Part shown: positions 7,013 to 57,162 of the stretch, in pieces
How positions within the stretch are numbered: the stretch's first letter is position 1
Layout: every line of letters starts with the position of its first letter
Assembly (NCBI RefSeq): GCF_003261055.1
Contig: NZ_CP030073.1
Coordinates: 6,820,001-6,884,000 of the forward strand
DNA length: 64,000 bases
From: Streptomyces cadmiisoli
Lineage (GTDB): Bacteria; Actinomycetota; Actinomycetes; Streptomycetales; Streptomycetaceae
Direction: 5' to 3'
Translations under genes and position numbers: made by a program
Notes under the pieces: generated by a model
Told to the model about the DNA's origin: nothing
Seen by the model: only the letters and a program-made list of their open reading frames with translations
The model's database searches: none

Positions 7013-7180
7013 GTCGCCATGATCGGGCACACGGACGGCGTGTGCACCCGGTTTCCCTGGTGCGCGCGGAGTGTCGGCTCCACGTTCCTCCTCCTGCTGT
7101 GTCCCTCTCCGTCCCGTCACCAGGTCGTACATCCACGACATCTGCCCCAACCCCCGGCCCCGCCGTTACTGTTGCCTTCG

Positions 7181-8605: not shown

Positions 8606-8615
8606 GCCACCGCCC

Positions 8616-11600: not shown

Positions 11601-12353
11601 GACCTCCCTGAGCGTCGGCGGCGCGGACTGTCCCTCGGTCGTCTTCACGTGCCGGGGCACCAGCCGCCGGAACACCAGCCAGCCCAGCGGCAGTACGGAG
11701 GTGGCGATGGCCGCCACCCAGGACACGAAGACACCGGTCACCGGGACGGCCACCGCCAGCGCGATCAGCAGCCCCAGTTTCACCGCGGAGAACACCGTGT
11801 TGCCGACCGGTACCCACAGCGCGCTGCGCAGCCCGGTCAGCACTCCGTCCTGGAGCGTGAGCAGGTTCCAGGCCACGACGGCCACCACGAAACCGGCCGC
11901 GGTCAGCGGCCCGTGCAGGAAGCGGTACGACGGCCCCCAGGCGTCCAGGGTCAGCAGGAAGACCCCGGCCGCGAGCGCCACCACCAGCGAACTGCCCGCG
12001 TAGGTGCGGAAGATGAGCCGACCCGTGGTACGGCCGGCGACCGGTATGAACCGGGCCAGCGCACCGGTGAGCGTCACCGCGGTGAGCCCCGCCAGCAGCT
12101 TCATCGCGGCGATCGCGGCCGAACCCTGGCCGACCGACGACTCGGAGTAGTACCGGGCCGCCGCCAGCCAGAAACCGAGGCCCAAAAGGGCGGAGATGCC
12201 GGTGTTGAGCATCAGCGCGTACGCGTTGCGGAACAGTTGACTGCCGCCCGGCGACCGGCCGAGTCCGGGCAGACGGAGCCGGCGCCGGGGCTGCTCCGCA
12301 TCCCGGGTCCCGGTCGGTTCGGCGGCCTGGGTCGTGGTCGTCGTGTCAGACAC
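8616..12353 (-). CDS. Wzx-like flippase fused to a large polytopic membrane domain
   Basis: A 1245-residue membrane protein in two parts. Residues about 40-445 look like a polysaccharide flippase of the MATE/Wzx (MVF) class: around 12-14 helices, starting NAYALMLNTGISALLGLGFW, with LTGAGVAEIASLAVIV near the end. Residues about 446-575 form a cytoplasmic linker rich in Pro, Glu and Asp. Residues about 575-1245 hold ten or more further helices with loop motifs such as YFSPQGFTYLLYL and a soluble segment before the last two helices. This resembles GT-C type glycosyltransferases or polymerases, but I cannot name the family. The gene overlaps the deacetylase by 8 bases and is last in the operon. 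Confidence 0.75.
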   Translation of the reverse strand: MSDTTTTTQAAEPTGTRDAEQPRRRLRLPGLGRSPGGSQLFRNAYALMLNTGISALLGLGFWLAAARYYSESSVGQGSAAIAAMKLLAGLTAVTLTGALARFIPVAGRTTGRLIFRTYAGSSLVVALAAGVFLLTLDAWGPSYRFLHGPLTAAGFVVAVVAWNLLTLQDGVLTGLRSALWVPVGNTVFSAVKLGLLIALAVAVPVTGVFVSWVAAIATSVLPLGWLVFRRLVPRHVKTTEGQSAPPTLREVGRFLAGDYTGSLFSLAVVYLVPVIVAAQVSSENNAYFYIATTIGGTVNLLAINMGASLTVEGSHDPGRLAANTRAALRRMARIMLPVAAVLFFGAPWILGVFGSGYADAATPLLRWFAVGAVLRVVMETYFAVLRAQSRTAGLAWLQGLLCALVLGLTLVLLPRMGLTGAGVAEIASLAVIVAVAAPKLYRTVKAAPSDPADAGAAPDGDLADLGAREVPVASGPARKRGPAWALDSDTLGLGIHVDLDHLERRPDVRPGPGTPPTGVPVVPESEVDAPFERDTEADEAAAEPEPRPEPVPVSVALAETELPPPRSSVPWHRRMAPTRLGVILGCLLVAALLLYWVPASRLGEADLDRMGGLGLVSVLPAPTLIGAALLVVVFGSLLWLGREHRALLLVTLLATVVSLHALPAVIEAEPRFATAWQHLGFLDHIERTGTAVPDLDARWSWPGFFAAAAFVAQACGIGDLTEVIRWWPLTVQLLYLAPMFLLTRSLRASWRAKWTGVWIFVLSGWVGQDYFSPQGFTYLLYLVFAAMLLVWFRAPRVIWSKARPGEAEVEPANRRQRTVLLLVVIGLFAATVPAHQLTPFVMLGVLTVLVLIGKSELRGLPILFGVMVATWIGFMAEPYWSGHFDELFGGVGGVGGNVSSSVSGRIEGGNSAHQLVLYARVALAGGVMAFACWGWWRRRDHKYRERSLLVLAFVPFLGFGMQSYGGEMALRVFMFALPGAALLAALALFPRTGVTAEERDKDRLSLAPLAALMAGLVLMGGFLVARWGNETFERVRPGEVAAMEYVYAHDEPSVRLLWLSDDPLETVTPAMPWGARDMERVQYVPTQAPTDPVLVSGLVKALKDAGPNSYLMINRSQVTFLRMDVGYSATWEPRLIQNLDRRPELRKVYVNEDVTLYTQARQPEGAVPKAHPGPPGPLVTWTPWSVVGALAALALIVLLTSREVVRVAMRPGVRRLRWLQSSFWFSLPLLAVLLASLVQRFLTMK

Positions 12354-13146
12354 GGGTTCGGCCGGCCTTCCGGCGGACCTGTCGTGCTCTGCGGACCATC
12401 GCGTATCCCTTGGTCAGGACGCGGTCGCCGGCGAAGGTGCGGGTGATCGCGCGGCCCCGGACGAGCCGCTCGAACTCCTCCGCACCGGTGCTGCGGCGCA
12501 CCGTGACACGACGCAGCGCGTACGGCCCCTGGTGCCGGCCGGCCAGGTCGTTGCCCACGGCGAGTGCCTGGGCGTACCCGGTGGCGCGCACCTCCTGCCG
12601 TACCCGCCGGCTGGAGTAGCCGTACGGGTAGGCGAACGACGTGGGGGGAGCGCCGAGTTCATCGGTGACGATGTCCCGGCAGCGGGTCAGCTCGTGGCGC
12701 AGCGCGTCGTCGTCGAGCTGGTCCAGCTGCGGGTGGCTGTGGCTGTGGCCGCCGATCTCCACACCGGCGCCGGCCAGCTCCCGCACCTGGTCCCAGTCGA
12801 GCATCCGGTCCAGGCCGCCCCCGGTGTCGTACGCGCCCCGCAGCCAGCCGGTGGAGACGAACAGGGTGGCCGGGAAGCCGTGCTTGGCGAGCACCGGCAG
12901 GGCGTGGCGGTGCACGCCCTCGTAGCCGTCGTCGAAGGTGACCAGCACCGGGTGCAGCGGCAGCGGGCGGCCGGTGCGCCAGCGCGCCGCCAGATCGGCC
13001 GTGGTGACCGGGGTGAGACCCAGGTCCGCCACGACGTCCATCTGCCGCGCGAACGCGTCGGGCGTGACCGACAGGGCGCGGGTGGCGTCGTTCGGGTCCA
13101 CCGCGACCGCGTGGTACATGAGGATCGGCACACGCGCCTCGCTCAT
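12346..13146 (-). CDS. Polysaccharide deacetylase (NodB homology, CE4)
   Basis: A 266-residue carbohydrate esterase family 4 enzyme that removes N- or O-acetyl groups from a polysaccharide. The NodB motifs are visible: VLVTFDDGYEGVHRHALPVL (motif 1, catalytic Asp and metal Asp), GGHSHSHPQLDQL (motif 2, metal His pair) and FAYPYGYSSRRV (motif 3). ILMYHAV near the N-terminus is typical of the PgaB/IcaB-like subgroup. No signal peptide is seen. The start overlaps the glycosyltransferase stop as ATGA. Its position in the flippase/glycosyltransferase operon points to modification of the same surface glycan. Confidence 0.85.
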   Translation of the reverse strand: MSEARVPILMYHAVAVDPNDATRALSVTPDAFARQMDVVADLGLTPVTTADLAARWRTGRPLPLHPVLVTFDDGYEGVHRHALPVLAKHGFPATLFVSTGWLRGAYDTGGGLDRMLDWDQVRELAGAGVEIGGHSHSHPQLDQLDDDALRHELTRCRDIVTDELGAPPTSFAYPYGYSSRRVRQEVRATGYAQALAVGNDLAGRHQGPYALRRVTVRRSTGAEEFERLVRGRAITRTFAGDRVLTKGYAMVRRARQVRRKAGRTRV

Positions 13147-14129
13147 CTCACGCCCCCCTCGATCGGCTCCACGGAGAACGTGGTGCCGCCCCTGCGCGCC
13201 CGGACACTCCCCACGACGTACCCACCGGCCGCCGCGAACACGCCCGCGACGATCGCCCCGGCCCGGCCCGCACCGCCCGGGCGGGCCAGCAGCGCGTCGC
13301 GCATCCCGCGGGCCACCCCGGCGGGCAGCACCCGGGTCGTGTACCGGCGTTCGGACTCCAGCCCCTTGTCCGCCCCGACGCTCCGGGCCACCAGCGCCTT
13401 CGACAGGCCCTCGGCGTAGGTGCGGGTGCGGAAGTAGCCGAAGTGCTCACGTGCCTCGGGCACCCGGTGGTGGATCACCGCGCGGTCGTCGATCAGCAGG
13501 ATGGCCTCGGGCACGGCCCGGCTGAGGCGGATGCACAGCTCCGTCTCCTCGCAGCCCAGCGGCCGCTTGTCGCCGTCGCGTCCGATGCCGGTGGCGAAAC
13601 CCCCCGCGGCGTCGAACGCGCCGCGGCGGAAGGAGGCGTTGCCGCCGAGGACGTTGCGCACCCGGACCCGCCCCTGCGGCAGGCCCCGGTAGGTGCAGCC
13701 GACCACCCAGTCGAACTCCTCCGGGAACCAGTCCGGGCGGCGGCCCGAGGCCCAGACCGGCTCCGTACGGCCGCCGACCGCCATGACCCGGGGGTCCGCG
13801 TAGCCCTCGGCGAAGTGGCGCAGCCAGTCGCGTTCGGCCACGGCGTCGTCGTCGAGGAACGCGATCACGTCGCCGTGGGAGGCGGCGATGCCGGTGTTGC
13901 GGCCGGCGGACAGTCCGCGGGGGCCCGCGTTGGCGAGCACCCGGACGTCCTCGGCCTCCTTGTACTCCTTGCCCAGCCGGTCCAGGAGCGCCTGGTTGTG
14001 GTCGACGACCAGGAGCGTCTCCAGCGCCGGACGGGACTGCGCCCGCACCGAGGCGACCGCCGCGAGGATGTCCTCCCAGCGGTCCTCGGTGTAGACGCAG
14101 ATCACGACGGAGATGTCGGGACCGCTCAA
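13143..14129 (-). CDS. Family 2 glycosyltransferase
   Basis: A 328-residue GT-A fold glycosyltransferase. ISVVICVYTEDRW opens the Rossmann-like core. LLVVDHNQ and NAGPRGLSAGRNTGI bind the nucleotide sugar. FLDDDAVAE contains the metal-binding D-x-D, and GGNASFRR and GCEETELCIRL (with the ED-like acidic catalytic site) come later. One or two weak hydrophobic helices near the C-terminus may associate with the membrane. The TTG start is inferred: it overlaps the previous stop as TTGA and has GGGAGAGG 5 bases upstream. It ends in ATGA with the deacetylase gene. Donor and acceptor are unknown. Confidence 0.82.
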   Translation of the reverse strand: MSGPDISVVICVYTEDRWEDILAAVASVRAQSRPALETLLVVDHNQALLDRLGKEYKEAEDVRVLANAGPRGLSAGRNTGIAASHGDVIAFLDDDAVAERDWLRHFAEGYADPRVMAVGGRTEPVWASGRRPDWFPEEFDWVVGCTYRGLPQGRVRVRNVLGGNASFRRGAFDAAGGFATGIGRDGDKRPLGCEETELCIRLSRAVPEAILLIDDRAVIHHRVPEAREHFGYFRTRTYAEGLSKALVARSVGADKGLESERRYTTRVLPAGVARGMRDALLARPGGAGRAGAIVAGVFAAAGGYVVGSVRARRGGTTFSVEPIEGGVR

Positions 14130-14947
14130 GACACCTCTCCCCGGACCGAGTCGAGCATCGGTGAGGGGTGCGAACGGCGACGCAGCGCACGCCGGTTGGA
14201 GCGCTCCCGCAGGATCACCCGCAGCACCCGCAGACCGTCGCGCACGGCACGCAGATTGCTGGTGCCGTGGATGCGGAGGTACTCGTGGCTCGGTATCTCC
14301 TGCACCTTCAGTCCCGCCTTGACCACCCGGATGTTCATCAGGGTCTCGACCTCGAACCCGGTGCAGTCGAGTTCGATCTTGTCCAGGCAGTGCCGCCAGA
14401 ACGCGTTGTATCCGTAGCACAGGTCGGTGTAGCGGGCGCCGAACTTGCGGTTGACGACGGCGCACAGGGCGCGGTTGCCGAGCTTGCGGATGAAGGTCAT
14501 GTCGTCGGTGCCGCCGCCGTTGGCGAAGCGCGACCCCTTGGCGAAGTCAGCGCCGGAGACGAGGGCGGAGACGTACGACACGATCTCGTTGCCGTCGGCC
14601 GAACCGTCCGCGTCGACCATCACGATGATGTCGCCGGAGCAGGCCTCGAAGCCGGTGATCAGCGCGTCGCCCTTGCCCTTGCCGCGCTGGGCGACGACCT
14701 TCACCCCCGGCCACAGATCGCGGGCGACGTCGACGGTGTCGTCGGTGGAGTTGCCGTCGACGAGGACCACTTCGTGGATCCAGTCCGGCAGCGTCTTGAA
14801 GACGTACGGGAGATTCTCCGCCTCGTTCATGGCGGGAATCACCACACTCACCGGCGGCGTGATGGCCAGGTGAGAGGAGATCGGCCGGTACGCGCCGGCG
14901 GTGGTCGGATCGTGGCTCGTGGTTGCCGAGCCCAGGATGGAGCTCAT
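14126..14947 (-). CDS. Family 2 glycosyltransferase (dolichyl-phosphate mannosyltransferase-like)
   Basis: A 273-residue GT2 enzyme similar to polyprenyl-phosphate sugar synthases. VSVVIPAMNEAENLPYV starts the catalytic domain, EVVLVDGNSTDDT follows, and IIVMVDADGSADGNEI holds the D-x-D metal site. RYTDLCYGYNAFWR and a GTSNLR motif near the end fit undecaprenyl-phosphate glycosyltransferases. It has no C-terminal membrane helices. The ATG was chosen for its fit with the family and a GAGGGA ribosome site. It is first in a tight four-gene unit (TTGA, ATGA and 8-base overlaps). It probably makes a lipid-linked sugar for the cluster. Confidence 0.82.
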   Translation of the reverse strand: MSSILGSATTSHDPTTAGAYRPISSHLAITPPVSVVIPAMNEAENLPYVFKTLPDWIHEVVLVDGNSTDDTVDVARDLWPGVKVVAQRGKGKGDALITGFEACSGDIIVMVDADGSADGNEIVSYVSALVSGADFAKGSRFANGGGTDDMTFIRKLGNRALCAVVNRKFGARYTDLCYGYNAFWRHCLDKIELDCTGFEVETLMNIRVVKAGLKVQEIPSHEYLRIHGTSNLRAVRDGLRVLRVILRERSNRRALRRRSHPSPMLDSVRGEVS

Positions 14948-15269
14948 GAGTCTGGTCCCTCTCGTCCGGTGGACCGCCCACCCCCGGGCGGCCCGGCTCT
15001 GTGTCCGGTTCGAAAGGGGGGTTGTCAATGGCATGGCTCACCGGCCCCGGAAAACGGCGACCGGTTGCGCGGCACGTCCCGGTCACCCGCAGGTCACCGA
15101 GCACGGCACCCCCCTACCGCGCCCCGCTTCGGCACTTTCGCGGCCCCTGAGCCCTCCCCTGGTGCCGCTGTGGTGATGGTCCGATGCGGGTGAGATGTAC
15201 GACGGTATTGACGAATCACTCCTTATGGCAAGACCTGGAACCTGCCCCACGTTTTTGTTGGTTTGGCCG
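14948..15269. other. Upstream region of the glycosyltransferase operon
   Basis: This 322-bp gap separates the FemAB-like gene from the glycosyltransferase operon. It should hold the operon promoter, but I see no convincing -35/-10 pair on the minus strand. The stretch 15190-15280 is markedly AT-richer than its surroundings. Confidence 0.4.
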
Positions 15270-16367
15270 TTACCTACGACCTGACCGGATCTTGCCCATT
15301 TGCTTCAGTAGTCTGTCGGCGGGTCCGAACAGTTCCGGACGTGCCACCACGACATTGCGCAGCGCCCTGACGGGGGCGCGGCGCGCCCGGTGCCCGAACG
15401 CCACCGGGTGACGGCGTGTCACCCATCCCTCCGACACCCGGATCTCACGGGTCTTGAGGGAGTCCTTGTATTCCTTCTGGCCCCGGCCCAGATCCAGATA
15501 CGCGATGCCGTCGGCGGCGGCCGCCTCGGCCATCCGCAGATGCAGGACGAGTCCCGGGGAGTACTTCGAGAACGCCGGGTCGTACGCCGGGAACCAGCAG
15601 GCGAGCACCCGTTCGGTGCGCAGTCCGAAGTGGGCGGCGACCGGTTTGCCGCCGGCGTAGAGCACGGACAGGATCCCGGCGAACGGCTCGGAGCGGGTGT
15701 GGAACAACTGCTGCACCAGCCGGGTGATCCAGTCGTGCGCGAAGCGGTCGCTGCGCCCGGTCCTGCGGTACTGGGCGGACTTCCAGTCCATCAGCGTGCG
15801 CAGGGCGGCGGGGTCGCGCTCGTCGTGCACGTACACCACGTCGCCGGTGTCACGGCCGAGTTTGCGCCCCTTGGCGAGCGTCGTACGGGTGAATTTCGGC
15901 GATCGCTCGCGCAGCGAGCCGAGATAGGCCTCGTAGCCCTGGTCGACGTCCATCACCGGGGACGGGAAGGTGTCCGAGGCCCCCTCCTCGAAGGGGAGTT
16001 GGCCCTCCACCAGGTGGTCGAACTCCCACACCGCGAGCCCGCAGGCCCGCAGCAGCTCGCGCGCGTCCCAGGTGAACCCGGGGCGGTGCACCACGCCCTG
16101 TGCGTCGGAGACGCCGAGGCCGACGGCCCGGCCGACACCGCTCGTCGTCTTCTGGAAGGCGAAGAAGGCGGCGGGTTCGCCGCCCTCGCGGACCACCGCG
16201 ATGCGCACACCGCGTCTGCACCGGCCCACCGCGAGCGCGAACTCGGGGGACAGGAAGGGATTCGCCAGTTCGGGCACACCGTGCAGATGCGCCTTGGCCT
16301 GCATGGCCGTCCAGGCCGCCCGGTCGGCGGCGGTCAGTTCGCCGGGGCGGTACACACTGATGTCCAC
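15270..16367 (-). CDS. FemAB/BioF2-like GNAT-fold acyl- or aminoacyltransferase
   Basis: A 365-residue protein with the double GNAT arrangement of the FemAB-like (Acetyltransf_6) family. Such proteins transfer acyl or amino-acid groups and often sit in exopolysaccharide clusters (PEP-CTERM/XrtA-type systems have a relative). Visible blocks are VREGGEPAAFFAFQ (first core), RERSPKFTRTTLAKGRKLGR, SVLYAGGKPVAAHFGLR, CWFPAYDPAFSKYSPGLVLHL and YLDLGRGQKEYKDSLKTREI. The last two form the highly conserved second-domain core. No signal or membrane segment is present. It starts 1 base after the stop of the preceding membrane protein gene, so the two form an operon. It probably decorates the polymer made by the downstream genes. 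Confidence 0.8.
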   Translation of the reverse strand: MDISVYRPGELTAADRAAWTAMQAKAHLHGVPELANPFLSPEFALAVGRCRRGVRIAVVREGGEPAAFFAFQKTTSGVGRAVGLGVSDAQGVVHRPGFTWDARELLRACGLAVWEFDHLVEGQLPFEEGASDTFPSPVMDVDQGYEAYLGSLRERSPKFTRTTLAKGRKLGRDTGDVVYVHDERDPAALRTLMDWKSAQYRRTGRSDRFAHDWITRLVQQLFHTRSEPFAGILSVLYAGGKPVAAHFGLRTERVLACWFPAYDPAFSKYSPGLVLHLRMAEAAAADGIAYLDLGRGQKEYKDSLKTREIRVSEGWVTRRHPVAFGHRARRAPVRALRNVVVARPELFGPADRLLKQMGKIRSGRR

Positions 16368-16368
16368 G

Positions 16369-16812
16369 TCACGAGCCCTGTCTTCTCGCGGTGCGGCCGC
16401 CGCGGCGCCGCACCAGGACCAGCAGGAGAGTGAGGGCGCTGACGGCGGTCACGGCCGCGATCCCGCCGCGTACCGACCACAGGTGCAGGGCCAGCAGGCC
16501 CTGGGCGACCAGCATGTCGACGACGATCGCGCCGGACAGCGACACGAGCGCCCGACTCAGCGGATCCAGTCCGTCGAGCGCGGCGGCGATGGCCACGGCC
16601 GGCGCCACCAGCAGGAAGAACAGCGTGAACGGCGCGCGCAGCGGCGCGCCGGACTCGGTCAGCGCGAGCAGCGCGCCGATCCCCCCGACGGCCGTCGCGG
16701 CCCCCGCGAGCACGAGTCCCAGGTCCCTCCCCGAACCCGGTCCCGTCCGCTCGATGCCTTCTGGTCCGTCTGGTCCGTCTGATGCATCTGTGTTGATGCG
16801 GATGGTCTGCAT
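16369..16812 (-). CDS. Small four-helix membrane protein of the polysaccharide locus
   Basis: A 147-residue protein with four predicted membrane helices (LGLVLAGAATAVGGIGALLA, the APFTLFFLLVAPAVAI region, VDMLVAQGLLALHLW, and AVTAVSALTLLLVLV) between a charged N-terminal tail and an Arg-rich end. The frame is open 59 codons further upstream; the ATG at MQTIRINTD was preferred because the membrane topology starts soon after it. It is transcribed just before the FemAB-like gene (1-base gap). I recognise no family. Its location suggests a role in polymer export or assembly at the membrane. Confidence 0.6.
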   Translation of the reverse strand: MQTIRINTDASDGPDGPEGIERTGPGSGRDLGLVLAGAATAVGGIGALLALTESGAPLRAPFTLFFLLVAPAVAIAAALDGLDPLSRALVSLSGAIVVDMLVAQGLLALHLWSVRGGIAAVTAVSALTLLLVLVRRRGGRTARRQGS

Positions 16813-31189: not shown

Positions 31190-31232
31190 ACCGGCCGATT
31201 CGCGCCGTGTCCCCGCGAGGCCTCCCCACCGT

Positions 31233-31250
31233 GCATACCGGTCGGTATGC
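31233..31250. promoter_or_regulatory. TetR-type operator before the molybdopterin oxidoreductase
   Basis: GCATACCGGTCGGTATGC is an 18-bp palindrome with 8-bp perfect arms and a 2-base centre. It lies 50 bp before the oxidoreductase GTG and 44 bp after the TetR stop. The arms are of the TACCG/CGGTA type common for TetR proteins. Confidence 0.65.
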
Positions 31251-49691: not shown

Positions 49692-50954
49692 TCAGCGGTA
49701 CAGGAGGTACTCCCTGCGCACCCGCCGGAAGGCCGCGAGCTCCTGCTGCCAGCCCGCCACCACGTCGTCGGTGTCCGCGCCGGCGTCGATCATCGTGCGG
49801 ACCAGGGTGGAGCCGGTGAGCTTGTCGATCCAGTTGTCCGGACGCCAGGCGAAGCCGCTCCAGGTCTTCTTCGCGGTCACCAGCAGGGCGATCCCGGTGC
49901 GCACCGGGTCGTACGCCGCCCGGTCGTGCACATGGAGCTGCACGCCCCCGACGGTCTTGCCCTGGAACTTCGAGAAGGTCGGCGCGAAGTACGCCTCCCT
50001 GAAGCGCACGCCCGGCAGGTCCAGCTCGTTGGCGGCGGCGGCCCAGCGCCCGTCGACGCCCTCCGCGCCGAGCAGTTCGAACGGTCTGGTGGTCCCGCGC
50101 CCCTCCGACAGGTTCGTCCCCTCGAACAGGCACGTCCCCGAATACACCAGGGCGGTCTCGGGCGTCGGCATGTTGGGGCTCGGCGGCACCCACGGCAGCC
50201 CGGAGGCGTCGTAGAAGTCCGACCGCCGCCAGCCAGTCATCTGCACGGTGTCCAGCCGCACCGGCGAGGCCAGGAACTCCCCGTTGAACAGCCGGGCCAG
50301 TTCCGCGACGGTCATGCCGTGCGCCTGGGAGATGGGCTGCCGTCCGACGAAGGTGGCGAACTCCTTGTGCAGCACGGGGCCGTCGGCCGATCGCCCGGTC
50401 ACCGGGTTGGGCCGGTCGAGCACCACGAGGCGCTTGCCCGCCAGGGCGGCCGCCTCCATGCAGTCGAACAGCGTCCAGATGTAGGTGTAGAAGCGCGCGC
50501 CCGCGTCCTGGATGTCGAAGACGACCGTGTCCACCTGCGACGCCGTGAAGATGTCGGCGAGCGGCTGCCCGCTCTTGAGGTAGGTGTCGTAGACGGGCAG
50601 CCCGGTCGCCGGGTCGTCGTAGCGGCCCTCGGAGCCGCCGGCCTGGGCCGTGCCGCGGAAGCCGTGCTCGGGACCGAAGACCGCGGTGAGGTTCACACGG
50701 TCGTCGGCGTGCATCACGTCGACGATGTGGCGTACGTCCCTGGTGATGCCGGTCGGGTTGGTGACCACGCCGACCCGGTCGCCGTCCAGGAGCGCGTAGC
50801 CGTCGGCGGCCAGCCGCTCGAAGCCGGTGCGCCCGCGGTGCCCCTTGCCGGTGGCCGGGGAGGCCGAATGCCCCGCCGCGGTGTTCGGGGACGCCGCGGA
50901 CAGGGATGCGACTGCCGTGGTCGTGGCGAGCAGACCGCGTCTGGACAGGTGCAT
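49692..50954 (-). CDS. NamZ-like exo-beta-N-acetylmuramidase (DUF1343, GH171)
   Basis: A 420-residue exported protein of the DUF1343 family, whose Bacillus subtilis member NamZ removes terminal N-acetylmuramic acid from peptidoglycan fragments. A TAT-like signal (SRRGLLATTTAVASLSAA, twin Arg near the start) covers residues 1-35. Family blocks are VGVVTNPTGITRD, VFGPEHGFRG (likely catalytic Glu), LPVYDTYL, VVFDIQDAGARFYTYIWTL and VLDRPNPV, in the expected order. GGAGGTC lies 5 bases before the ATG. A LacI-type palindrome about 45 bp upstream suggests induction by muropeptides or MurNAc. It would act in cell-wall recycling. Confidence 0.88.
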   Translation of the reverse strand: MHLSRRGLLATTTAVASLSAASPNTAAGHSASPATGKGHRGRTGFERLAADGYALLDGDRVGVVTNPTGITRDVRHIVDVMHADDRVNLTAVFGPEHGFRGTAQAGGSEGRYDDPATGLPVYDTYLKSGQPLADIFTASQVDTVVFDIQDAGARFYTYIWTLFDCMEAAALAGKRLVVLDRPNPVTGRSADGPVLHKEFATFVGRQPISQAHGMTVAELARLFNGEFLASPVRLDTVQMTGWRRSDFYDASGLPWVPPSPNMPTPETALVYSGTCLFEGTNLSEGRGTTRPFELLGAEGVDGRWAAAANELDLPGVRFREAYFAPTFSKFQGKTVGGVQLHVHDRAAYDPVRTGIALLVTAKKTWSGFAWRPDNWIDKLTGSTLVRTMIDAGADTDDVVAGWQQELAAFRRVRREYLLYR

Positions 50955-50995
50955 GAGTGACCTCCGGGACCGGATTGACAGTGGCATGGGCACGT

Positions 50996-51005: not shown

Positions 51006-51118
51006 CCCGGGTGGTGCGGAAGGTGCGGGCCGCGGGAGACCGGCCCAGCCGTTCGGCGCAGTCGCGCGGCCCCGCGGCCACCCGCTCGCACGACGTCGCG
51101 TCACCCTTCCTCTACCAC

Positions 51119-51136
51119 ATACCGACCGGTTAGTCT
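51119..51136. promoter_or_regulatory. TetR-type operator before the SDR/acyl-CoA synthetase operon
   Basis: ATACCGACCGGTTAGTCT shares 14 of 18 bases with the palindrome at 56576-56593, which fronts the kinase/dehydrogenase operon. It lies 49 bp before the SDR start. Confidence 0.6.
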
Positions 51137-51184
51137 GACCCGGCAGAGCCGCAGGCGCGTCAGCCCCGAAGGAGACCGGTCGTC

Positions 51185-51946
51185 GTGGAAGCCGTGCAGG
51201 GTACGGGAGTGGTCGTCACCGGAGCGGGGGGCGGCATCGGAGCCGCGCTGGCCCGCCGATTCGCCGCCGAGGGCGCGCGCGTGGTGGTCAACGACCTGGA
51301 CGCCGGCAAGGCGGAGGCGGTCGCCGAGGAGATCGGCGGGATCGCCGTCGCGGGCGACGCCTCCGCCGTCCTCGACCGGGCGAGGGACGCGCTCGGCGGC
51401 ACGGTCGACGTCTACTGCGCGAACGCCGGTGTCGCCTCGGGCGGCTCGGAGGACGCGGGCGAGCCCGTCTGGGAACTCGCCTGGGACGTCAACGTGATGG
51501 CCCATGTCCGCGCCGCGCAGGCCCTGCTGCCGGACTGGCTGGAACGCGGCAGCGGGCGGTTCGTCTCCACGGTGTCCGCCGCCGGGCTGCTCACCATGAT
51601 CGGCGCCGCGCCCTACAGCGTCACCAAGCACGGCGCCTACGCCTTCGCGGAGTGGCTGTCCCTGACGTACCGCCACCGGGGTCTGAAGGTCCACGCGATC
51701 TGCCCGCAGGGCGTGCGCACCGACATGCTGGCCGGCACCGGCAGCGCGGGCGACCTGGTGCTGGTGCCGACCGCGATCGCGCCCGAGGACGTGGCGGACG
51801 CGCTGTTCAAGGGCATCGAGGAGGACCGCTTCCTGATCCTGCCGCACCCCGAGGTCGCCGAGTACTACCGGGCGCGGGCCGCCGATCCGGAGCGCTGGCT
51901 CGGCAACATGAACCACCTCCAGCAGAAGTGGGAGTCGCTGCGGTGA
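51185..51946 (+). CDS. Short-chain dehydrogenase/reductase (LvaD-like position)
   Basis: A 253-residue classical SDR. VVVTGAGGGIGAALARRF (about residues 9-26) is the NAD(P) motif TGxxxGIG. VDVYCANAGVASGG is the NAG motif. The Ser/Tyr/Lys centre is STVSAAGLLTM with YSVTKHG (Tyr-x3-Lys). AAGGAG lies upstream of the GTG. Its stop overlaps the acyl-CoA synthetase start as GTGA. In the levulinate operon of Pseudomonas putida an SDR (LvaD) reduces the 4-keto group of levulinyl-CoA. A similar keto/hydroxy-acyl-CoA step is plausible here given the neighbours, but is not proven. Confidence 0.87.
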   Translation: MEAVQGTGVVVTGAGGGIGAALARRFAAEGARVVVNDLDAGKAEAVAEEIGGIAVAGDASAVLDRARDALGGTVDVYCANAGVASGGSEDAGEPVWELAWDVNVMAHVRAAQALLPDWLERGSGRFVSTVSAAGLLTMIGAAPYSVTKHGAYAFAEWLSLTYRHRGLKVHAICPQGVRTDMLAGTGSAGDLVLVPTAIAPEDVADALFKGIEEDRFLILPHPEVAEYYRARAADPERWLGNMNHLQQKWESLR

Positions 51947-53610
51947 CCGGCTCACGGTACGCGGCCAAGCCCTGGCTGGCGCTGCTCGACGACGCCCAGC
52001 GCGCCCCGGTCGACCCCGCCGACTCCCTGGTGCACGCGCTGCGCCGGGCGGTCACCGAGGCGCCGGACCGTACCTTCCTCACCTACTTCGACGGGCGGCT
52101 GAGCTACCGCGACGTCGACCTGCTCAGCGACTCGGTCGCCGGGCACCTCGCCGCGCGCGGTCTGGAGCGCGGCGACCGGGTCGCCGTGCTCCTGCAGAAC
52201 TCGCCGCACTTCGTACTCGCCGTGCTCGGCGCCTGGAAGGCGGGCGCGGTCGTCGTCCCGGTCAACCCGATGTACAAGTCGGCGGAGGCGGGGCACGTAC
52301 TGCGGGACGGCGGGGTGACCGCGCTGATCTGCTCCGAGCGGGCCTGGGAGGCGTATCTGCGCGAGGCCGCCGCCGACTCGCCGGTGCGGATCGCGCTCAC
52401 CGCCAGCGAGCTGGACTTCCAGACCCGGCACGACACGCGCGTGCTCGGCTTCGAGCCGCTCCCGCGGGCGGCGGACGCCGACGACCTCGTCTCCGTCGCC
52501 CGGCACGGGCACCCGGCCCCCGAGGACCGCGACCCCGGCCCGGCCGACATCGCGCTGATCAGCTACACCTCCGGCACCAGCGGCACCCCCAAGGGAGCCA
52601 CCAACACCCACGGCAACATCATGTACAACGCCGAGCGGCAGCGGACCGGCCTCGCCCTGCCCGACGCGCCGGTGTACTTCGCGATGGCGCCGCTGTTCCA
52701 CATCACCGGCATGGTCTGCCAGTTCGGCGCCTGTCTGAACAGCGCGGGCACCCTGGTGCTGGCCCACCGCTTCGAGGCCGGCGTCGTCCTGGAGGCGTTC
52801 GCCGCGCACCGGCCGCACTACACGGTCGGCCCGTCGACCGCGTTCATGGCGCTGGCCGCCCACCCCTCCGTCACCCCGGACCACTTCTCGTCCTTCCGGA
52901 TCATCTCCTCCGGAGGCGCCCCGCTGCCGCCGGCCCTGGTGGAGAAGTTCCGGGCCGGCTTCGGGCCGTACATCCGCAACGGCTACGGGCTCACCGAGTG
53001 CACCGCGCCGTGCGCCGCCGTCCCGCCCGGCCGCGAGGCGCCCGTCGACCCGGGTTCGGGAACCCTGGCCGTGGGCGTGCCGGGACCCGACACGGTCGTG
53101 CGCATCGTCGACGACCAGGGTGCGGAGCTGCCGTTCGGGGAGCAGGGCGAGATCGTCGTACGCGGCCCGCAGGTCGTGCCCGGCTACTGGCGGCGGCCCG
53201 ACGCCACCGCCGAGACCTTCCCCGGCGGCGAGCTGCGCACCGGCGACATCGGGTTCATGGACACCGAGGGCTGGCTGTACGTCGTCGACCGCAAGAAGGA
53301 CATGATCAACGCGTCCGGCTTCAAGGTCTGGCCGCGCGAGGTCGAGGACGTGCTGTACACCCACCCGGCCGTACGCGAGGCGGCCGTCGTCGGCGTCCCC
53401 GACGGCTACCGGGGAGAGACCGTCAAGGCCTACATCAGCCTGCGCCCGGGAGCCGAGGCGGACCCGGACGCGCTCGCCGCGTACTGCAAGGAGAGACTGG
53501 CCGCCTACAAGTACCCGCGGCAGGTGGAGGTCCTGCCCGACTTGCCGAAGACGGCGAGTGGGAAGATCCTCCGTCGGGAATTGCGTTCCCGTTCACGCGA
53601 GAGTCAGTGA
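51943..53610 (+). CDS. Acyl-CoA synthetase (AMP-forming)
   Basis: A 555-residue ANL-superfamily ligase that activates a carboxylic acid to its CoA ester via an acyl-adenylate. Core motifs are LISYTSGTSGTPKGATNTHG (A3, P-loop), YIRNGYGLTECTAP (A5), GELRTGDIGFMDTEGWLYVVDRKKD (A7/A8; stretch cut at GELRTGDIG and VVDRKKDMI), and LPKTASGKILRREL (A10 with catalytic Lys). It is full length. It starts as GTGA overlapping the SDR stop. With the SDR in front and the acyl-CoA dehydrogenase/kinase operon behind, it probably feeds a medium-chain or keto/hydroxy acid into breakdown. Confidence 0.9.
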   Translation: MTGSRYAAKPWLALLDDAQRAPVDPADSLVHALRRAVTEAPDRTFLTYFDGRLSYRDVDLLSDSVAGHLAARGLERGDRVAVLLQNSPHFVLAVLGAWKAGAVVVPVNPMYKSAEAGHVLRDGGVTALICSERAWEAYLREAAADSPVRIALTASELDFQTRHDTRVLGFEPLPRAADADDLVSVARHGHPAPEDRDPGPADIALISYTSGTSGTPKGATNTHGNIMYNAERQRTGLALPDAPVYFAMAPLFHITGMVCQFGACLNSAGTLVLAHRFEAGVVLEAFAAHRPHYTVGPSTAFMALAAHPSVTPDHFSSFRIISSGGAPLPPALVEKFRAGFGPYIRNGYGLTECTAPCAAVPPGREAPVDPGSGTLAVGVPGPDTVVRIVDDQGAELPFGEQGEIVVRGPQVVPGYWRRPDATAETFPGGELRTGDIGFMDTEGWLYVVDRKKDMINASGFKVWPREVEDVLYTHPAVREAAVVGVPDGYRGETVKAYISLRPGAEADPDALAAYCKERLAAYKYPRQVEVLPDLPKTASGKILRRELRSRSRESQ

Positions 53611-53628
53611 GTCATCACGGAAAGGCAG

Positions 53629-54231
53629 GTGGCGGCAGTGCCCAGGACGACGGACGGAGAGGGAGCCCCAGTTCCTCAGCGGCTCCTTGCCGCCGCCACC
53701 CGGCTCTTCGCCGAGCAGGGATACGACCGCACCTCGGTGCAGGAGATCGTCGAGGCGGCCGGCGTCACCAAGGGTGCGCTGTACCACTACTTCGGCTCCA
53801 AGGACGACCTCCTGCACGAGGTCTACGCCCGTGTCCTGCGCGTGCAGCAGGAGCGCCTCGACGCCTTCGCCGACGCCGACGAGCCGGTCGAGAAGCGGCT
53901 GCGGGCCGCGGCGGCCGACGTGGTGGTCACGACGATCGAGAACCTCGACGACGCGATGATCTTCTTCCGCTCCATGCACCATCTGAGCCCGGAGAAGAAC
54001 AAGCAGGTGCGGGCCGAGCGCCGGCGCTACCACGAGCGCTTCCGCGCGCTCATCGAGGAGGGCCAGCAGGCGGGCGTCTTCTCCGCCGCCACACCCGCCG
54101 ACCTCGTCGTCGACTACCACTTCGGCTCGGTCCACCATCTGTCGACCTGGTACCGGCCCGACGGCCCGCTCAGCCCGCAGGAGGTCGCCGACCAGCTGGC
54201 CGACCTGCTGCTGCGCGCGCTGCGGCCCTGA
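53629..54231 (+). CDS. TetR-family regulator of the acyl-CoA cluster
   Basis: A 200-residue TetR repressor. The HTH is RLLAAATRLFAEQGYDRTSV, QEIVEAAGVTKGALYHYFGS, then KDDLLHEVYARVL. The C-terminal domain includes IFFRSMHHLSPEKNKQVRAE and DYHFGSVHHLSTWYRPDGPL. A second GTG nine bases in (53638) is an equally possible start. It lies 18 bp after the synthetase on the same strand, between two operons with matching palindromes (51119 and 56576). It is therefore the likely repressor of the whole cluster, released by an acyl-CoA. Confidence 0.87.
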   Translation: MAAVPRTTDGEGAPVPQRLLAAATRLFAEQGYDRTSVQEIVEAAGVTKGALYHYFGSKDDLLHEVYARVLRVQQERLDAFADADEPVEKRLRAAAADVVVTTIENLDDAMIFFRSMHHLSPEKNKQVRAERRRYHERFRALIEEGQQAGVFSAATPADLVVDYHFGSVHHLSTWYRPDGPLSPQEVADQLADLLLRALRP

Positions 54232-54247
54232 ACGGCGCGAACGGTGC

Positions 54248-54285
54248 GGACGCGGTGCGGTCCCGGCCGGGACCGCACCGCGTCC
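54248..54285. terminator. Strong bidirectional terminator
   Basis: A perfect 38-bp palindrome in the 60-bp convergent gap: the arms GGACGCGGTGCGGTCCC and its complement flank GGCC. The stem is 17 bp and ends both the TetR and the acyl-CoA dehydrogenase transcripts. Confidence 0.85.
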
Positions 54286-54291
54286 GGCCGC

Positions 54292-55506
54292 TCACAGGTA
54301 CTTCTTCAGTTCCCGCCGCGCCAGCGACCGCTGGTGCACCTCGTCCGGGCCGTCGGCGATCATCAGGGTCCGGGCTCCCGCGTACAGCTCCGCCAGCGGG
54401 AAGTCCTGGCTGACGCCGCCCGCGCCGTGCAACTGGATCGCCTTGTCGAGGATGCCGACGACGGTGCGGGGCGTGGCGATCTTGATCGCCTGGATCTCCG
54501 TGTGGGCGCCCCGGTTGCCGACCGTGTCCATCATCCACGCCGTCTTCAGCACCAGCAGCCGCAGTTGCTCGACGGCCACCCGCGCGTCCGCGATCCAGTT
54601 GTGCACCACGCCCTGCTGGGCCAGCGCCTTGCCGAAGGCCGTACGGTCCACGGCCCTGCGGCACATCAGTTCGATCGCCCGCTCGGCCATGCCGATCAGC
54701 CGCATGCAGTGGTGGATCCGGCCGGGACCGAGCCGCGCCTGGGCGATGGCGAAGCCGCCGCCCTCCTCGCCGATCAGATGGGACACCGGCACGCGCGCGT
54801 GGTCGAAGACCACCTCGGCGTGGCCGCCGTGGTAGTGGTCCTCGTAGCCGAAGACCTGCATCGCGCGCCGGATGGTGACGCCGGGCGTGTCGCGCGGCAC
54901 CAGGACCATGGACTGCTGCCGGCGCGGGTCCGTCCCGTCCGGGTCGGTCTTGCCCATCACGATGAAGATCGCGCAGTCCGGGTTCATCGCGCCGGAGATG
55001 TACCACTTGCGGCCCGTGATGACGTACTCGTCGCCGTCCCGCTCGATGTGCGTCGTGATGTTCGTGGCGTCGGAGGACGCGACGTCCGGCTCCGTCATCG
55101 CGAACGCCGACCGGATCTCACCGGCGAGCAGCGGCTGGAGCCACTGCTTCTTCTGCCGCTCGTCGCCGAACTGCGCGAGCACCTCCATGTTCCCGGTGTC
55201 CGGCGCGGCGCAGTTCGTCGCGGTCGGCGCGAGCTGCGGGGACCGGCCGGTGATCTCGGCCAGCGGGGCGTACTGGAGGTTGGTGAGCCCCGCGCCGTAC
55301 TCGGAGTCGGGCAGGAAGAGGTTCCACAGCCCCTGGCGGCGCGCCTCGGCCTTCAGCTCCTCGACGACCGGCGGGGTGTCCCACGGCGAGGCGAGCCGCT
55401 CGCGCTGCTCGTGCGCGACCCGTTCGGCCGGGTGGACGTACTCGTCCATGAAGGCGAGCAGCTTGGCGCGCAGCTCCTCGGTGCGTGCGTCGAACGCGAA
55501 GTCCAT
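54292..55506 (-). CDS. Acyl-CoA dehydrogenase (ACAD10/11-like group)
   Basis: A 404-residue FAD-dependent acyl-CoA dehydrogenase. The N-terminal helices start MDFAFDARTEELRAKLLAFM and continue with HPAERVAHEQRERL. RSAFAMTEPDVASSDATNI and YVITGRKWYISGAMNPDC form the FAD/substrate middle domain. CMRLIGMAERAIELMCRRAV, AFGKALAQQGVVHNWIADAR and LHGAGGVSQDFPLAELYAGA complete the family. The ADGPDEVHQRSLAR end is typical of members related to eukaryotic ACAD10/11. It starts 6 bases after the kinase stop, so the two form one operon, mirroring the fused kinase-dehydrogenase of ACAD10/11. Confidence 0.9.
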   Translation of the reverse strand: MDFAFDARTEELRAKLLAFMDEYVHPAERVAHEQRERLASPWDTPPVVEELKAEARRQGLWNLFLPDSEYGAGLTNLQYAPLAEITGRSPQLAPTATNCAAPDTGNMEVLAQFGDERQKKQWLQPLLAGEIRSAFAMTEPDVASSDATNITTHIERDGDEYVITGRKWYISGAMNPDCAIFIVMGKTDPDGTDPRRQQSMVLVPRDTPGVTIRRAMQVFGYEDHYHGGHAEVVFDHARVPVSHLIGEEGGGFAIAQARLGPGRIHHCMRLIGMAERAIELMCRRAVDRTAFGKALAQQGVVHNWIADARVAVEQLRLLVLKTAWMMDTVGNRGAHTEIQAIKIATPRTVVGILDKAIQLHGAGGVSQDFPLAELYAGARTLMIADGPDEVHQRSLARRELKKYL

Positions 55507-55512
55507 GACGGA

Positions 55513-56535
55513 TCAGCCTTCCTGAAGAGTGGTCAGGCCGTGCTCGATGAAGACGGGGACCAGCTCGCCGATGCGGTCGAAGCCGCCGCCGACGGTCTGC
55601 CCGAGCGTGTAGCGGTAGTGGATGCCCTCGAGGATCACGGCGAGCTTGAACCAGGCGAACGCCGTGTACCAGGAGATCGCCGCGGCGTCCCGCCCGGAGC
55701 GGGCGGCGTACCGCTCGACGATCTCGGCCGGGGCCGGGTGCCCGGCGGCCTCGGCGGTGGTGGAGACCGGCGAGTGCGACGTGCCCAGCGGGGTGCTGTA
55801 CATCACCAGCAGGCCGAGATCGGTCAGCGGGTCGCCGAGCGTGGACATCTCCCAGTCGAGGATCGCCGTGATCCGGTCGTCGGCGCCGATCAGGACGTTG
55901 TCCAGCCGGTAGTCGCCGTGCACCACGGTCGGCGCGGGGGAGCGGGGCAGCTCCCGGCCGAGCGCCGCGTGCAGCTCGTCGATGCCGGCCAGTTCACGGT
56001 TGCGGGAGGCGTCCAGCTGCTTGCCCCAGCGGCGCAGCTGCCGGTCCAGGAAGCCCTCGGGGCGGCCGAAGTCCGCGAGGCCCACCTCGGCGGGGTCCAC
56101 CGCGTGCAGGTCGACGAGCGTGTCCACCAGCGACAGCACCGCGTCCCTGGTGCGCTCGGGGCCGAGCGGGGTGAGCTGGTCCGCGGTGCGGTACGGGGTG
56201 CCGGGCACGAACTCCATGACGTAGAACGGCGCTCCGAGCACCTCCTCGTCCTCGCACAGCAGCACCGGACGCGGCACCGGCACGTTCGTCGGGTGCAGGG
56301 CGCTGATCACCCGGTGTTCGCGCCGCATGTCGTGCGCGGTGGCCAGCACGTGACCGAGCGGCGGCCGGCGTACGACCCACTGCGACGCGCCGTCGGTGAC
56401 GGCGTAGGTGAGGTTCGACCGTCCGCCCTCGATCAGCCGGCCGGTCAGCGGGCCGTGCACCAGGCCCGGCCGTTCGCGGTCGAGCAGACCGCGCAGCCGG
56501 TCGGGATCGAGGCCAGGCGGGTGGTCGGCAACCAT
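55513..56535 (-). CDS. APH-family acyl-CoA-associated kinase (LvaA-like)
   Basis: A 340-residue aminoglycoside-phosphotransferase-fold kinase. LIEGGRSNLTYAVTDGASQW carries the nucleotide loop, VVRRPPLGHVLATAHDMRRE the ATP lysine region, VVHGDYRLDNVLIGADDRIT the catalytic loop (Asp of HGD), and AILDWEMSTLGDPLTDLGLL the metal Asp. This subfamily includes P. putida LvaA and the kinase domain of ACAD10/11, which phosphorylate 4-hydroxyacyl-CoA, and is unlikely to confer drug resistance. AGGAG lies 7 bases before the ATG. It is first in an operon with the acyl-CoA dehydrogenase, with an operator 41 bp upstream. Confidence 0.88.
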   Translation of the reverse strand: MVADHPPGLDPDRLRGLLDRERPGLVHGPLTGRLIEGGRSNLTYAVTDGASQWVVRRPPLGHVLATAHDMRREHRVISALHPTNVPVPRPVLLCEDEEVLGAPFYVMEFVPGTPYRTADQLTPLGPERTRDAVLSLVDTLVDLHAVDPAEVGLADFGRPEGFLDRQLRRWGKQLDASRNRELAGIDELHAALGRELPRSPAPTVVHGDYRLDNVLIGADDRITAILDWEMSTLGDPLTDLGLLVMYSTPLGTSHSPVSTTAEAAGHPAPAEIVERYAARSGRDAAAISWYTAFAWFKLAVILEGIHYRYTLGQTVGGGFDRIGELVPVFIEHGLTTLQEG

Positions 56536-56575
56536 CGTCGCTCCTACGGACACGGGAAACAGGACTCGACCAATG

Positions 56576-56593
56576 ATGCCGACCGGTCGGTAT
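56576..56593. promoter_or_regulatory. TetR-type operator of the kinase/dehydrogenase operon
   Basis: ATGCCGACCGGTCGGTAT is an 18-bp palindrome broken only at positions 3 and 16, with a perfect 12-bp centre. It lies 41 bp before the kinase ATG and matches the site at 51119-51136. Confidence 0.7.
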
Positions 56594-56640
56594 GTAGTCC
56601 AGAGTGTCGCGTGAACGTGACCCGGGCCACGATAGGCCGA

Positions 56641-56712: not shown

Positions 56713-57009
56713 TCAGTGGTCGTCCCAGTGGCCGTTGTGCGCGGCGTGCCGGTGGCCGTCGTGCAGGTAGTCGACGTGGTCGCCGTGCTGGACCCGCAGG
56801 TGGCCGCAGTTCTCGTCGTGCTGGTGGTCGTGGTCCGCGTGGGCGGCGTGCCCGCTGGGCTCGCACTCGTCCCAGTGCCCGTCGTGCTCGCGGTGCAGGT
56901 GACCGTCGTGCGCGTAGTCGATGTGGTCGCCGTGCGGAACCTCGTCGTGCCCGCAGGCCGGGCCGTGGGCGTGCGGGTGCGCGGAGTGTTCCTGGTGGAG
57001 GGTGGTCAT
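56713..57009 (-). CDS. Histidine-rich metal-binding repeat protein
   Basis: A 98-residue cytoplasmic protein with about 30 His residues. After MTTLHQEHSAHPHAHGPA it consists of two copies of a 29-residue unit, each starting with CGH and containing HGDHxDYxHDGHxH and ending GHWD. An acidic/His linker joins them (ECEPSGHAAHADHDHQHDEN). Three Cys and the ordered His spacing point to high-capacity zinc, nickel or copper storage. GAAGG precedes the ATG. Upstream, TATGTT may be a -10. No metal regulator gene is adjacent. The metal is unknown. Confidence 0.75.
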   Translation of the reverse strand: MTTLHQEHSAHPHAHGPACGHDEVPHGDHIDYAHDGHLHREHDGHWDECEPSGHAAHADHDHQHDENCGHLRVQHGDHVDYLHDGHRHAAHNGHWDDH

Positions 57010-57162
57010 GGCGTTCACCTTCGTGGTCCGGGTGATGACGACGGACAGGCTGCCATGCGAAGAGAACATATCCCGACATTCGGGGTGCGTGGCGTGCGAC
57101 TGCCGACCCGGACCCGACCTGCGGACCCGACCGCGTACCTGCCCCGCGGACCCGGTGGCGTT

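What the first reader, a model, noticed from the sequence alone, without database searches (positions are those of the whole stretch)
51119..56593. Lva/ACAD10-11-like cluster for breakdown of keto or 4-hydroxy acids in Streptomyces
The cluster has SDR, acyl-CoA synthetase, APH-type kinase and acyl-CoA dehydrogenase. In P. putida the levulinate operon uses the same four activities (LvaD, LvaE, LvaA, LvaC): activation to CoA, keto reduction, phosphorylation of the 4-hydroxyl, and rearrangement to 3-hydroxyacyl-CoA. In animals the kinase and dehydrogenase are fused in ACAD10/11. Here they are adjacent genes 6 bp apart. No LvaB-like small protein is present, as in ACAD10/11. The natural substrate may be a hydroxy or keto fatty acid, or a gamma-lactone.
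Basis: partly seen in the sequence, partly recalled or inferred. Interest (0 to 1): 0.75.

Follow-up and report, generated by a model that had tools for sequence, protein, structure and literature searches.

The report
Streptomyces 4-hydroxy-acid catabolic regulon
A widespread Streptomyces gene cluster looks like the bacterial counterpart of the animal ACAD10/11 enzymes that break down 4-hydroxy fatty acids, with its two facing gene sets tied together by one shared DNA switch, which makes the pathway and its natural substrate directly testable in a laboratory Streptomyces.

Summary
The ACAD is 54% identical to mouse ACAD11 and keeps the residues named for the 4-phosphoacyl-CoA reaction (R258, H266, R269, D385); four other own-genome ACADs examined lack the full set. 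The kinase is closest to ACAD11 and unassigned bacterial kinases, far from antibiotic kinases of known target. Of 149 actinobacterial genomes 49 have both genes, of 53 with the ACAD; mostly they are not adjacent. New here: SDR-ACS-TetR and kinase-ACAD carry the same 20-bp palindrome, in 19 of 19 and 20 of 20 upstream regions compared; it resembles published PfmR and PaaR operators. So it is probably one TetR regulon, joined in some species by an F420-dependent oxidoreductase. Most likely it activates 4-oxo/4-hydroxy acids or opened gamma-lactones to CoA, phosphorylates the 4-hydroxyl and eliminates phosphate to 2-enoyl-CoA. It is not an lva operon (no LvaR or LvaB), levulinate is unproven, and LvaA could not be obtained for the tree.

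The parts
51118..51137 (+). palindromic operator in front of SDR, CATACCGACCGGTTAGTCTG
   Evidence: same word in 19 of 19 SDR upstreams compared
51185..51946 (+). SDR oxidoreductase (GxxxGxG at residue 13, YSVTK at 144); candidate 4-oxo/4-hydroxyacyl oxidoreductase
   Evidence: the substrate is inferred
51943..53610 (+). acyl-CoA synthetase (AMP-binding + C-terminal domain), overlaps the SDR stop by 4 bp
53629..54231 (+). TetR regulator (TetR_C_24), proposed repressor of both units
   Evidence: present in 19 of 19 Streptomyces loci read
54292..55506 (-). ACAD10/11- and LvaC-type acyl-CoA dehydrogenase family protein with R258, R263, H266, R269, D385
55513..56535 (-). ACAD10/11- and LvaA-type kinase (APH family), proposed 4-hydroxyacyl-CoA kinase, with R72-E73, R165, D208, N213
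56575..56594 (-). palindromic operator in front of kinase-ACAD, CATACCGACCGGTCGGCATC
   Evidence: same word in 20 of 20 kinase upstreams compared

Best explanation
The five genes are one TetR-controlled catabolic regulon for acids oxygenated at carbon 4. The synthetase makes the CoA thioester; the SDR sets the 4-position (4-oxo to 4-hydroxy, or interconverts the two); the kinase phosphorylates the 4-hydroxyl of the acyl-CoA; the ACAD, using FAD without net oxidation, eliminates phosphate to give 2-enoyl-CoA, which enters ordinary beta-oxidation. TetR sits on the same palindrome in front of both convergent units and is released by a CoA intermediate. Shown here: gene content, diagnostic residues, co-occurrence, shared conserved palindrome. 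Inferred from ACAD10/11 and LvaA/LvaC: the kinase and ACAD chemistry. Inferred only: the SDR role, the substrate, TetR as the binder and its ligand.
For: ACAD: best solved relatives are ACAD11 (8v3u, E 8.6e-136; 53.7% identity to mouse ACAD11) and 4hr3; the first structure outside that group has E 3e-40. All six positions named for ACAD11 in PMC12440821 section 7 are kept (HRRHRD); the four key ones are in 155 of 177 ACAD rows, and four other own-genome ACADs in the set lack the full set (TGRVRE, TARVGE, TRRIFG, TARICE). Kinase: ACAD11 kinase E 2.9e-47 and 35% identity, against E 4.8e-7 or worse for macrolide, viomycin and capreomycin kinases; NCBIfam APH(3') 39 bits against a cut-off of 205. 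Co-occurrence: 49 of 53 ACAD genomes of 149. In 19 Streptomyces loci: kinase-ACAD 19, TetR 19, SDR 18, synthetase 16. Palindrome: 39 of 39 upstream regions; no further exact match of the pattern in the 10.24-Mb genome; with at most 1 mismatch in 13 genomes, 17 sites against 0 for the reversed control.
Against: No biochemistry. SDR and synthetase are generic (none of the 25 best NCBIfam models listed for each reached its cut-off), and 3 of 19 loci lack a full synthetase, 1 also the SDR, so those steps may be supplied elsewhere. In 38 of 49 phylum genomes with both genes the pair is not adjacent as assembled. The kinase lies outside the ACAD11 clade, its best structure 9o56 and the weaker 9fsg (E 3.1e-10) are named aminoglycoside phosphotransferase (-like) by their depositors, and the kinase residues also occur in several own-genome APH paralogues, so they do not discriminate. 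One of 13 genomes (G004) has the kinase but no site at 1 mismatch. The palindrome core was not found in the other actinobacterial loci, the second own-genome cluster or the Rhodococcus loci scanned. TetR as binder is inferred from position and family.
Confidence: 0.8

Rival explanations
1. The kinase-ACAD chemistry is right, but the natural entry is a 4-hydroxy acid or gamma-lactone, and the SDR oxidises or inverts the 4-hydroxyl (kinases of this kind may prefer one enantiomer) rather than reducing a 4-keto acid such as levulinate.
For: ACAD10 kinase strongly prefers the R form (PMC11342911 passage). Other ACAD-APH operons carry two SDR genes and no listed synthetase beside them (the plasmid gene tables are incomplete). 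The SDR is generic.
Against: Nothing here separates reduction from oxidation or inversion; the synthetase next to the SDR fits an acid entering as free acid either way.
Confidence: 0.35
2. Ordinary straight-chain beta-oxidation genes beside an unrelated APH-family kinase.
For: Pfam domains alone would allow it; synthetase and SDR are generic.
Against: The catalytic Asp and the phosphate-contacting Arg/His/Arg set are intact; ACAD10/11 showed no activity on the plain acyl-CoAs tested in the passage read; kinase and ACAD co-occur even when not adjacent and share one palindrome with the rest.
Confidence: 0.06
3. The kinase is a drug-modifying (aminoglycoside or macrolide type) kinase and the palindrome is a stress or resistance switch.
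For: PF01636 and the depositors' name of 9o56 refer to phosphotransferases of the aminoglycoside kind.
Against: Antibiotic kinases of named target match only at E 4.8e-7 or worse and far under NCBIfam cut-offs; the enzyme partners are CoA-handling families.
Confidence: 0.02

Closest known systems
Mammalian ACAD10 and ACAD11 (PMC12440821, PMC11342911)
   Same: kinase and ACAD of the same two families; all named catalytic and phosphate-contacting ACAD residues; kinase HGD....N and both CoA-contacting arginines by description
   Different: separate adjacent genes instead of one fused chain; TetR regulon with SDR and synthetase; kinase in another branch of the tree
lva operon of Pseudomonas putida (Rand 2017, not held; known here through passages of PMC6692424, PMC12440821 and PMC11342911)
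   Same: same four enzyme types: synthetase, SDR, APH-type kinase, ACAD
   Different: two convergent units; TetR instead of the sigma54-dependent LvaR; no LvaB or LvaF/LvaG-like gene in the five-gene interval; substrate unknown. P. citronellolis also lacks LvaB (PMC6692424)
ACAD-(SDR)-APH-histidine phosphatase operons of Proteobacteria, Deinococcus and a Streptomyces plasmid
   Same: same ACAD and kinase families with SDR
   Different: histidine phosphatase present, synthetase not listed inside the operon; kinases in a different 44-row clade
PfmR (Thermus) and PaaR (Burkholderia) TetR operators (PMC7022988, PMC2770484; passages)
   Same: palindrome core: published PfmR consensus TACCGACCGNTNGGTN differs at one position from each window site; PaaR repeat ACCGACCGGTCGGT
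   Different: other target genes (fatty-acid and phenylacetate metabolism)
qsd gamma-lactone operon of Rhodococcus erythropolis (PMC3689677, PMC4640858, PMC6262395; passages)
   Same: TetR-type regulator with an acyl-CoA ligase; opening a gamma-lactone gives a 4-hydroxy acid
   Different: lactonase QsdA and MFS gene; no kinase or ACAD in the text searched

Membership tests
ACAD10/11-LvaC ACAD family | R626, H634, R637, D753 (mouse ACAD11) conserved | tested here: met
   R258, H266, R269, D385, residue list
ACAD10/11-LvaC ACAD family | closer to ACAD11 than to conventional ACADs of known structure | tested here: met
   E 8.6e-136 against 3e-40
ACAD10/11-LvaC ACAD family | elimination of 4-phosphate with redox-active FAD and no net oxidation | not testable with these tools
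   needs enzyme assay
ACAD10/11-LvaA kinase family | APH fold with catalytic Asp and Asn (mouse D220, N225) and two CoA-contacting Arg | tested here: met
   D208, N213, R165, R72 beside the alpha-C Glu. The paper's R86 was placed by its description, since its number does not fit the printed chain by the same offset. Some own-genome APH paralogues share R-D-N
ACAD10/11-LvaA kinase family | clusters with ACAD11 kinase and LvaA away from other APH kinases | tested here: inconclusive
   actinobacterial clade beside an ACAD11-containing clade at a weakly supported fork (91/75); thin outgroup; LvaA not obtained
lva operon | single operon with LvaR (sigma54 type) | tested here: not met
   two convergent units with TetR; LvaR type from PMC6692424
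lva operon | LvaB small protein | tested here: not met
   no gap over 60 bp between the genes
lva operon | synthetase and SDR specific for levulinate | not tested
   LvaD and LvaE sequences not obtained
PfmR/PaaR-type TetR regulators | related TetR protein and CCGACCGGTCGG-type palindrome | tested here: inconclusive
   domain and palindrome found; binding not testable; that 3vpr, the nearest solved relative, is PfmR is recalled

The most novel reading that the evidence does not exclude
The regulon is a core Streptomyces salvage route for gamma-lactone or butenolide molecules, its own hormones included: opened lactones are 4-hydroxy acids, and a homologous kinase-ACAD pair (55% and 71% identical) sits on a Streptomyces plasmid in a biosynthetic-looking neighbourhood with an AfsA-related hotdog protein and ketosynthases.
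Probability: 0.08. Interest if true: 0.78.

Novelty: new variant of a known kind. Interest (0 to 1): 0.5.

Why it matters
It extends the 4-phosphoacyl-CoA route, worked out in Pseudomonas and mammals, to 57 of 61 genomes of the window's genus by kinase and to 49 of 149 sampled actinobacterial genomes by both genes. In the records seen these proteins carry generic names such as acyl-CoA dehydrogenase family protein and phosphotransferase family protein. The conserved palindrome gives a simple handle: whatever releases TetR from it should reveal the natural substrate.

Tried and rejected
Single lva-like operon: rejected, two convergent units and a TetR gene. Kinase-ACAD fusions in Actinobacteria: L093 and L210 gave ORFs of 813 and 776 aa, but Pfam finds only APH in them, so the length is spurious frame extension. 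Genes between TetR and ACAD in six loci (L113-L115, L119, L121, L122) differ between loci, except that L121 and L122 share a peptidase-like one (by look), so not counted as part of the system. Larger regulon from sites with up to 2 mismatches: rejected, since they are no commoner than the reversed control (27 against 25). P. putida LvaA/LvaC for the tree: sought through plasmids, one genome-contig scan and Pseudomonas genomes and not found; 77 of 79 Pseudomonas genomes have at least one ACAD of this kind, beside a LysR-looking gene in two loci. Literature: no paper on this cluster in Streptomyces was seen in the listings of searches; the listings are capped and the library holds only open licences, so this is weak.
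Full report
What is there. The window lies in a 10.24-Mb genome, taken as Streptomyces from named close relatives of its proteins. From 51185 to 56535 there are five genes without room for others: SDR, acyl-CoA synthetase and TetR on the + strand, then ACAD and APH-family kinase on the - strand. SDR and synthetase overlap by 4 bp; ACAD and kinase are 6 bp apart; the TetR and ACAD stops face each other 60 bp apart. Codon-position GC supports the ACAD, kinase and TetR frames.

ACAD. Its best solved relatives are ACAD11 (8v3u, 8v3v, 2wbi) and 4hr3 (putative acyl-CoA dehydrogenase; bacterial source recalled) at E 8.6e-136 to 2.9e-134; the next has E 3e-40. Identity to mouse ACAD11 is 53.7% over 402 columns. 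PMC12440821 section 7 (read whole) names R626, H634 and R637 as phosphate-contacting and D753 as catalytic, with R631 and H597 nearby. I aligned 177 ACAD rows (window, mouse, 172 ACAD-labelled frames from L068-L249, 3 from own-genome loci, one of these a repeat of a row in L108). The window has all six residues; 155 of 177 rows have the four key ones. Of the 22 without, 2 score 400-600 bits and differ at one key position (HRRYRD, HRRHKD), 18 score under 200 bits, and 2 are own-genome conventional ACADs: L008 has none of the three phosphate contacts, L009 only R637, both Glu in place of Asp. Two more own-genome ACADs (the second one of L108, and L110) also lack the full set. The own genome has 28 ACAD matches in all; the rest were not examined.

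Kinase. Among solved structures the best are 9o56 (named aminoglycoside phosphotransferase by its depositors), 3dxp and ACAD11 (E 1.9e-65 to 3.8e-46); then 9fsg (aminoglycoside phosphotransferase-like, 3.1e-10) and macrolide kinases from 4.8e-7. The catalytic D208 and N213, R165 and R72-E73 match ACAD11 residues described for CoA binding and catalysis; R72 was matched by the paper's description, not its number. R-D-N at the last three positions is kept in 92 of 95 family rows, but also in some own-genome APH paralogues, so this does not discriminate. A tree of 90 kinase cores was built from 96 prepared rows: the 6 missing rows are own-genome paralogues with short matched cores; 13 of 17 Streptomyces orthologues (L111-L127) were left out beforehand; Pseudomonas kinases fetched were not included. 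It puts the window with Streptomyces orthologues (100/94) in a 16-row actinobacterial clade (88/85), beside a 17-row clade with mouse ACAD11 and 3dxp (100/100) and a 44-row, mainly proteobacterial clade (100/100) that also holds some actinobacterial kinases and 9o56. Four own-genome APH paralogues fall outside; two on long branches fall among the clades, and the joining fork is weak (91/75), so the branching is open. LvaA was not obtained.

Distribution. The kinase is found in 57 of 61 genomes of the genus at E at most 1e-60, best matches 70-100% identical, three of them partial. In 149 genomes sampled from the phylum the ACAD (E at most 1e-100) is in 53 and the kinase (profile, E at most 1e-40) in 60; 49 have both, 4 ACAD only, 11 kinase only, 85 neither (Fisher p 9e-24, ignoring relatedness). 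The genes are adjacent in only 11 of those 49 as assembled, so co-occurrence is not mere linkage. In 19 Streptomyces loci read with flanks (18 chosen from the 61 genomes: L107, L111-L127; plus L068), kinase-ACAD are adjacent in 19, TetR is near in 19, SDR in 18, synthetase in 16. L107 and L116 lack the synthetase; L123 keeps only its end and lacks the SDR. In six loci other genes lie between TetR and ACAD, yet linkage persists.

One regulon. Upstream stretches (260 bases, plus 60 into the gene) of SDR and kinase from the window and those loci share CATACCGAC in 19 of 19 and 20 of 20. In front of SDR it reads CATACCGACYGGTTAGTCTG in all 19; in front of the kinase CATACCGACYRGTCGGCATB in 18 of 20, and a form shifted by one base in L118 and L119. 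In the window: 51118-51137 and 56575-56594. The word is in none of the synthetase, TetR and ACAD upstream stretches taken. A pattern made from these sites has no other exact match in the 10.24-Mb genome, and two matches with 1 mismatch. In 13 genomes at most one mismatch gives 17 sites against 0 for the reversed control; 11 of the 13, own included, have it at the kinase, G006 has the shifted form there (L119) and G004 none (with coordinates). The 13-base core was not found in the other actinobacterial loci scanned (L069-L106), in the second own-genome cluster L108, nor in the Rhodococcus loci L160, L166 and L167 or plasmid loci L159 and L168, so this switch looks specific to the Streptomyces orthologues. 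A third site lies in front of a TIGR03619 F420-dependent LLM oxidoreductase gene, followed by an FO-synthase-like gene (name judged by look). Of 24 Streptomyces orthologues of that gene (in 31 genomes), the 10 with 86% identity or more, own included, have the site within 4 mismatches, each better than 200 of 200 mononucleotide shuffles; the other 14 do not. The own site was among the references used. In one genome (L352) a site lies between a hydrolase and a thiolase gene.

Regulator. PMC7022988 (passages) gives the PfmR consensus of Agari et al. as TACCGACCGNTNGGTN; each window site differs at one position. PMC2770484 (passages) reports that the conserved repeat, ACCGACCGGTCGGT, is needed for negative control of paaA and proposes PaaR as its binder. 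The nearest solved TetR is 3vpr (E 9.7e-27), which I recall as PfmR. So TetR is most simply an acyl-CoA-responsive repressor of both units; binding and ligand are inferred.

Mechanism. By the chemistry shown for ACAD10/11 and reported for LvaA/LvaC (passages of PMC12440821, PMC11342911 and PMC6692424), kinase and ACAD should convert 4-hydroxyacyl-CoA to 4-phosphoacyl-CoA and then 2-enoyl-CoA. Synthetase and SDR fit activation and setting of carbon 4, but they are generic and lost in some loci. PMC6692424 reports that LvaE loss is tolerated in P. putida and that no lvaB homologue was found in the P. citronellolis region, so neither a missing LvaB nor a lost synthetase argues against the pathway.

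Relation to known systems. It works like lva and ACAD10/11 but is not an lva operon: regulator type, LvaB and single-operon layout fail. Levulinate as substrate is not supported by anything here.

Noticed in passing
L108 (G000:C1:413000-432000), 7582-13136: A second kinase-ACAD cluster in the same genome, on one strand: ACAD (about 40% identical, signature HRRHRD kept), conventional-type ACAD, kinase (46%), SDR, TetR-like gene, beside an enoyl-CoA hydratase on the other strand; the palindrome core was not found.
   Followed up: partly
L158 (plasmid of Streptomyces cathayae, NZ_CP121683.1), 6915-10760: Plasmid copy between IS3 transposase genes with both operator-like sites, kinase and ACAD about 88% and 92% identical, only the last 26 residues of the synthetase matched and TetR matched in two pieces.
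   Followed up: partly
L159 (plasmid of Streptomyces sp. NBC_00388), 6853-16508: Homologous kinase-ACAD pair inside a biosynthetic-looking neighbourhood with ketosynthases, CoA-transferase and an AfsA-related hotdog protein.
   Followed up: no
window 31230-31249: A related but differently spaced palindrome (GCATACCGGTCGGTATGC) just after a likely regulator gene and in front of a molybdopterin-oxidoreductase-like gene; a similar site precedes a similar gene in L345. The gene names are judged by look, not from a family search.
   Followed up: no
window 56716-57069 (-): Histidine-rich 118-aa protein without Pfam match at E 1e-5, directly upstream of the kinase operator.
   Followed up: no
window 49692-50993 (-): NamZ-type exo-muramidase gene, divergent from the SDR and seen next to the cluster in 11 of 19 Streptomyces loci, some of which were cut short on that side; no functional link seen.
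   Followed up: partly
L161-L165, L168: ACAD-(SDR)-APH operons with a histidine phosphatase in Proteobacteria, Deinococcus and a Streptomyces plasmid, a second layout of the same enzymes.
   Followed up: partly
G000:C1:8436950-8437210: Short piece 61% identical to the ACAD, with one stop codon inside; no match to the cluster's proteins over 40% of their length in the stretch around it.
   Followed up: no
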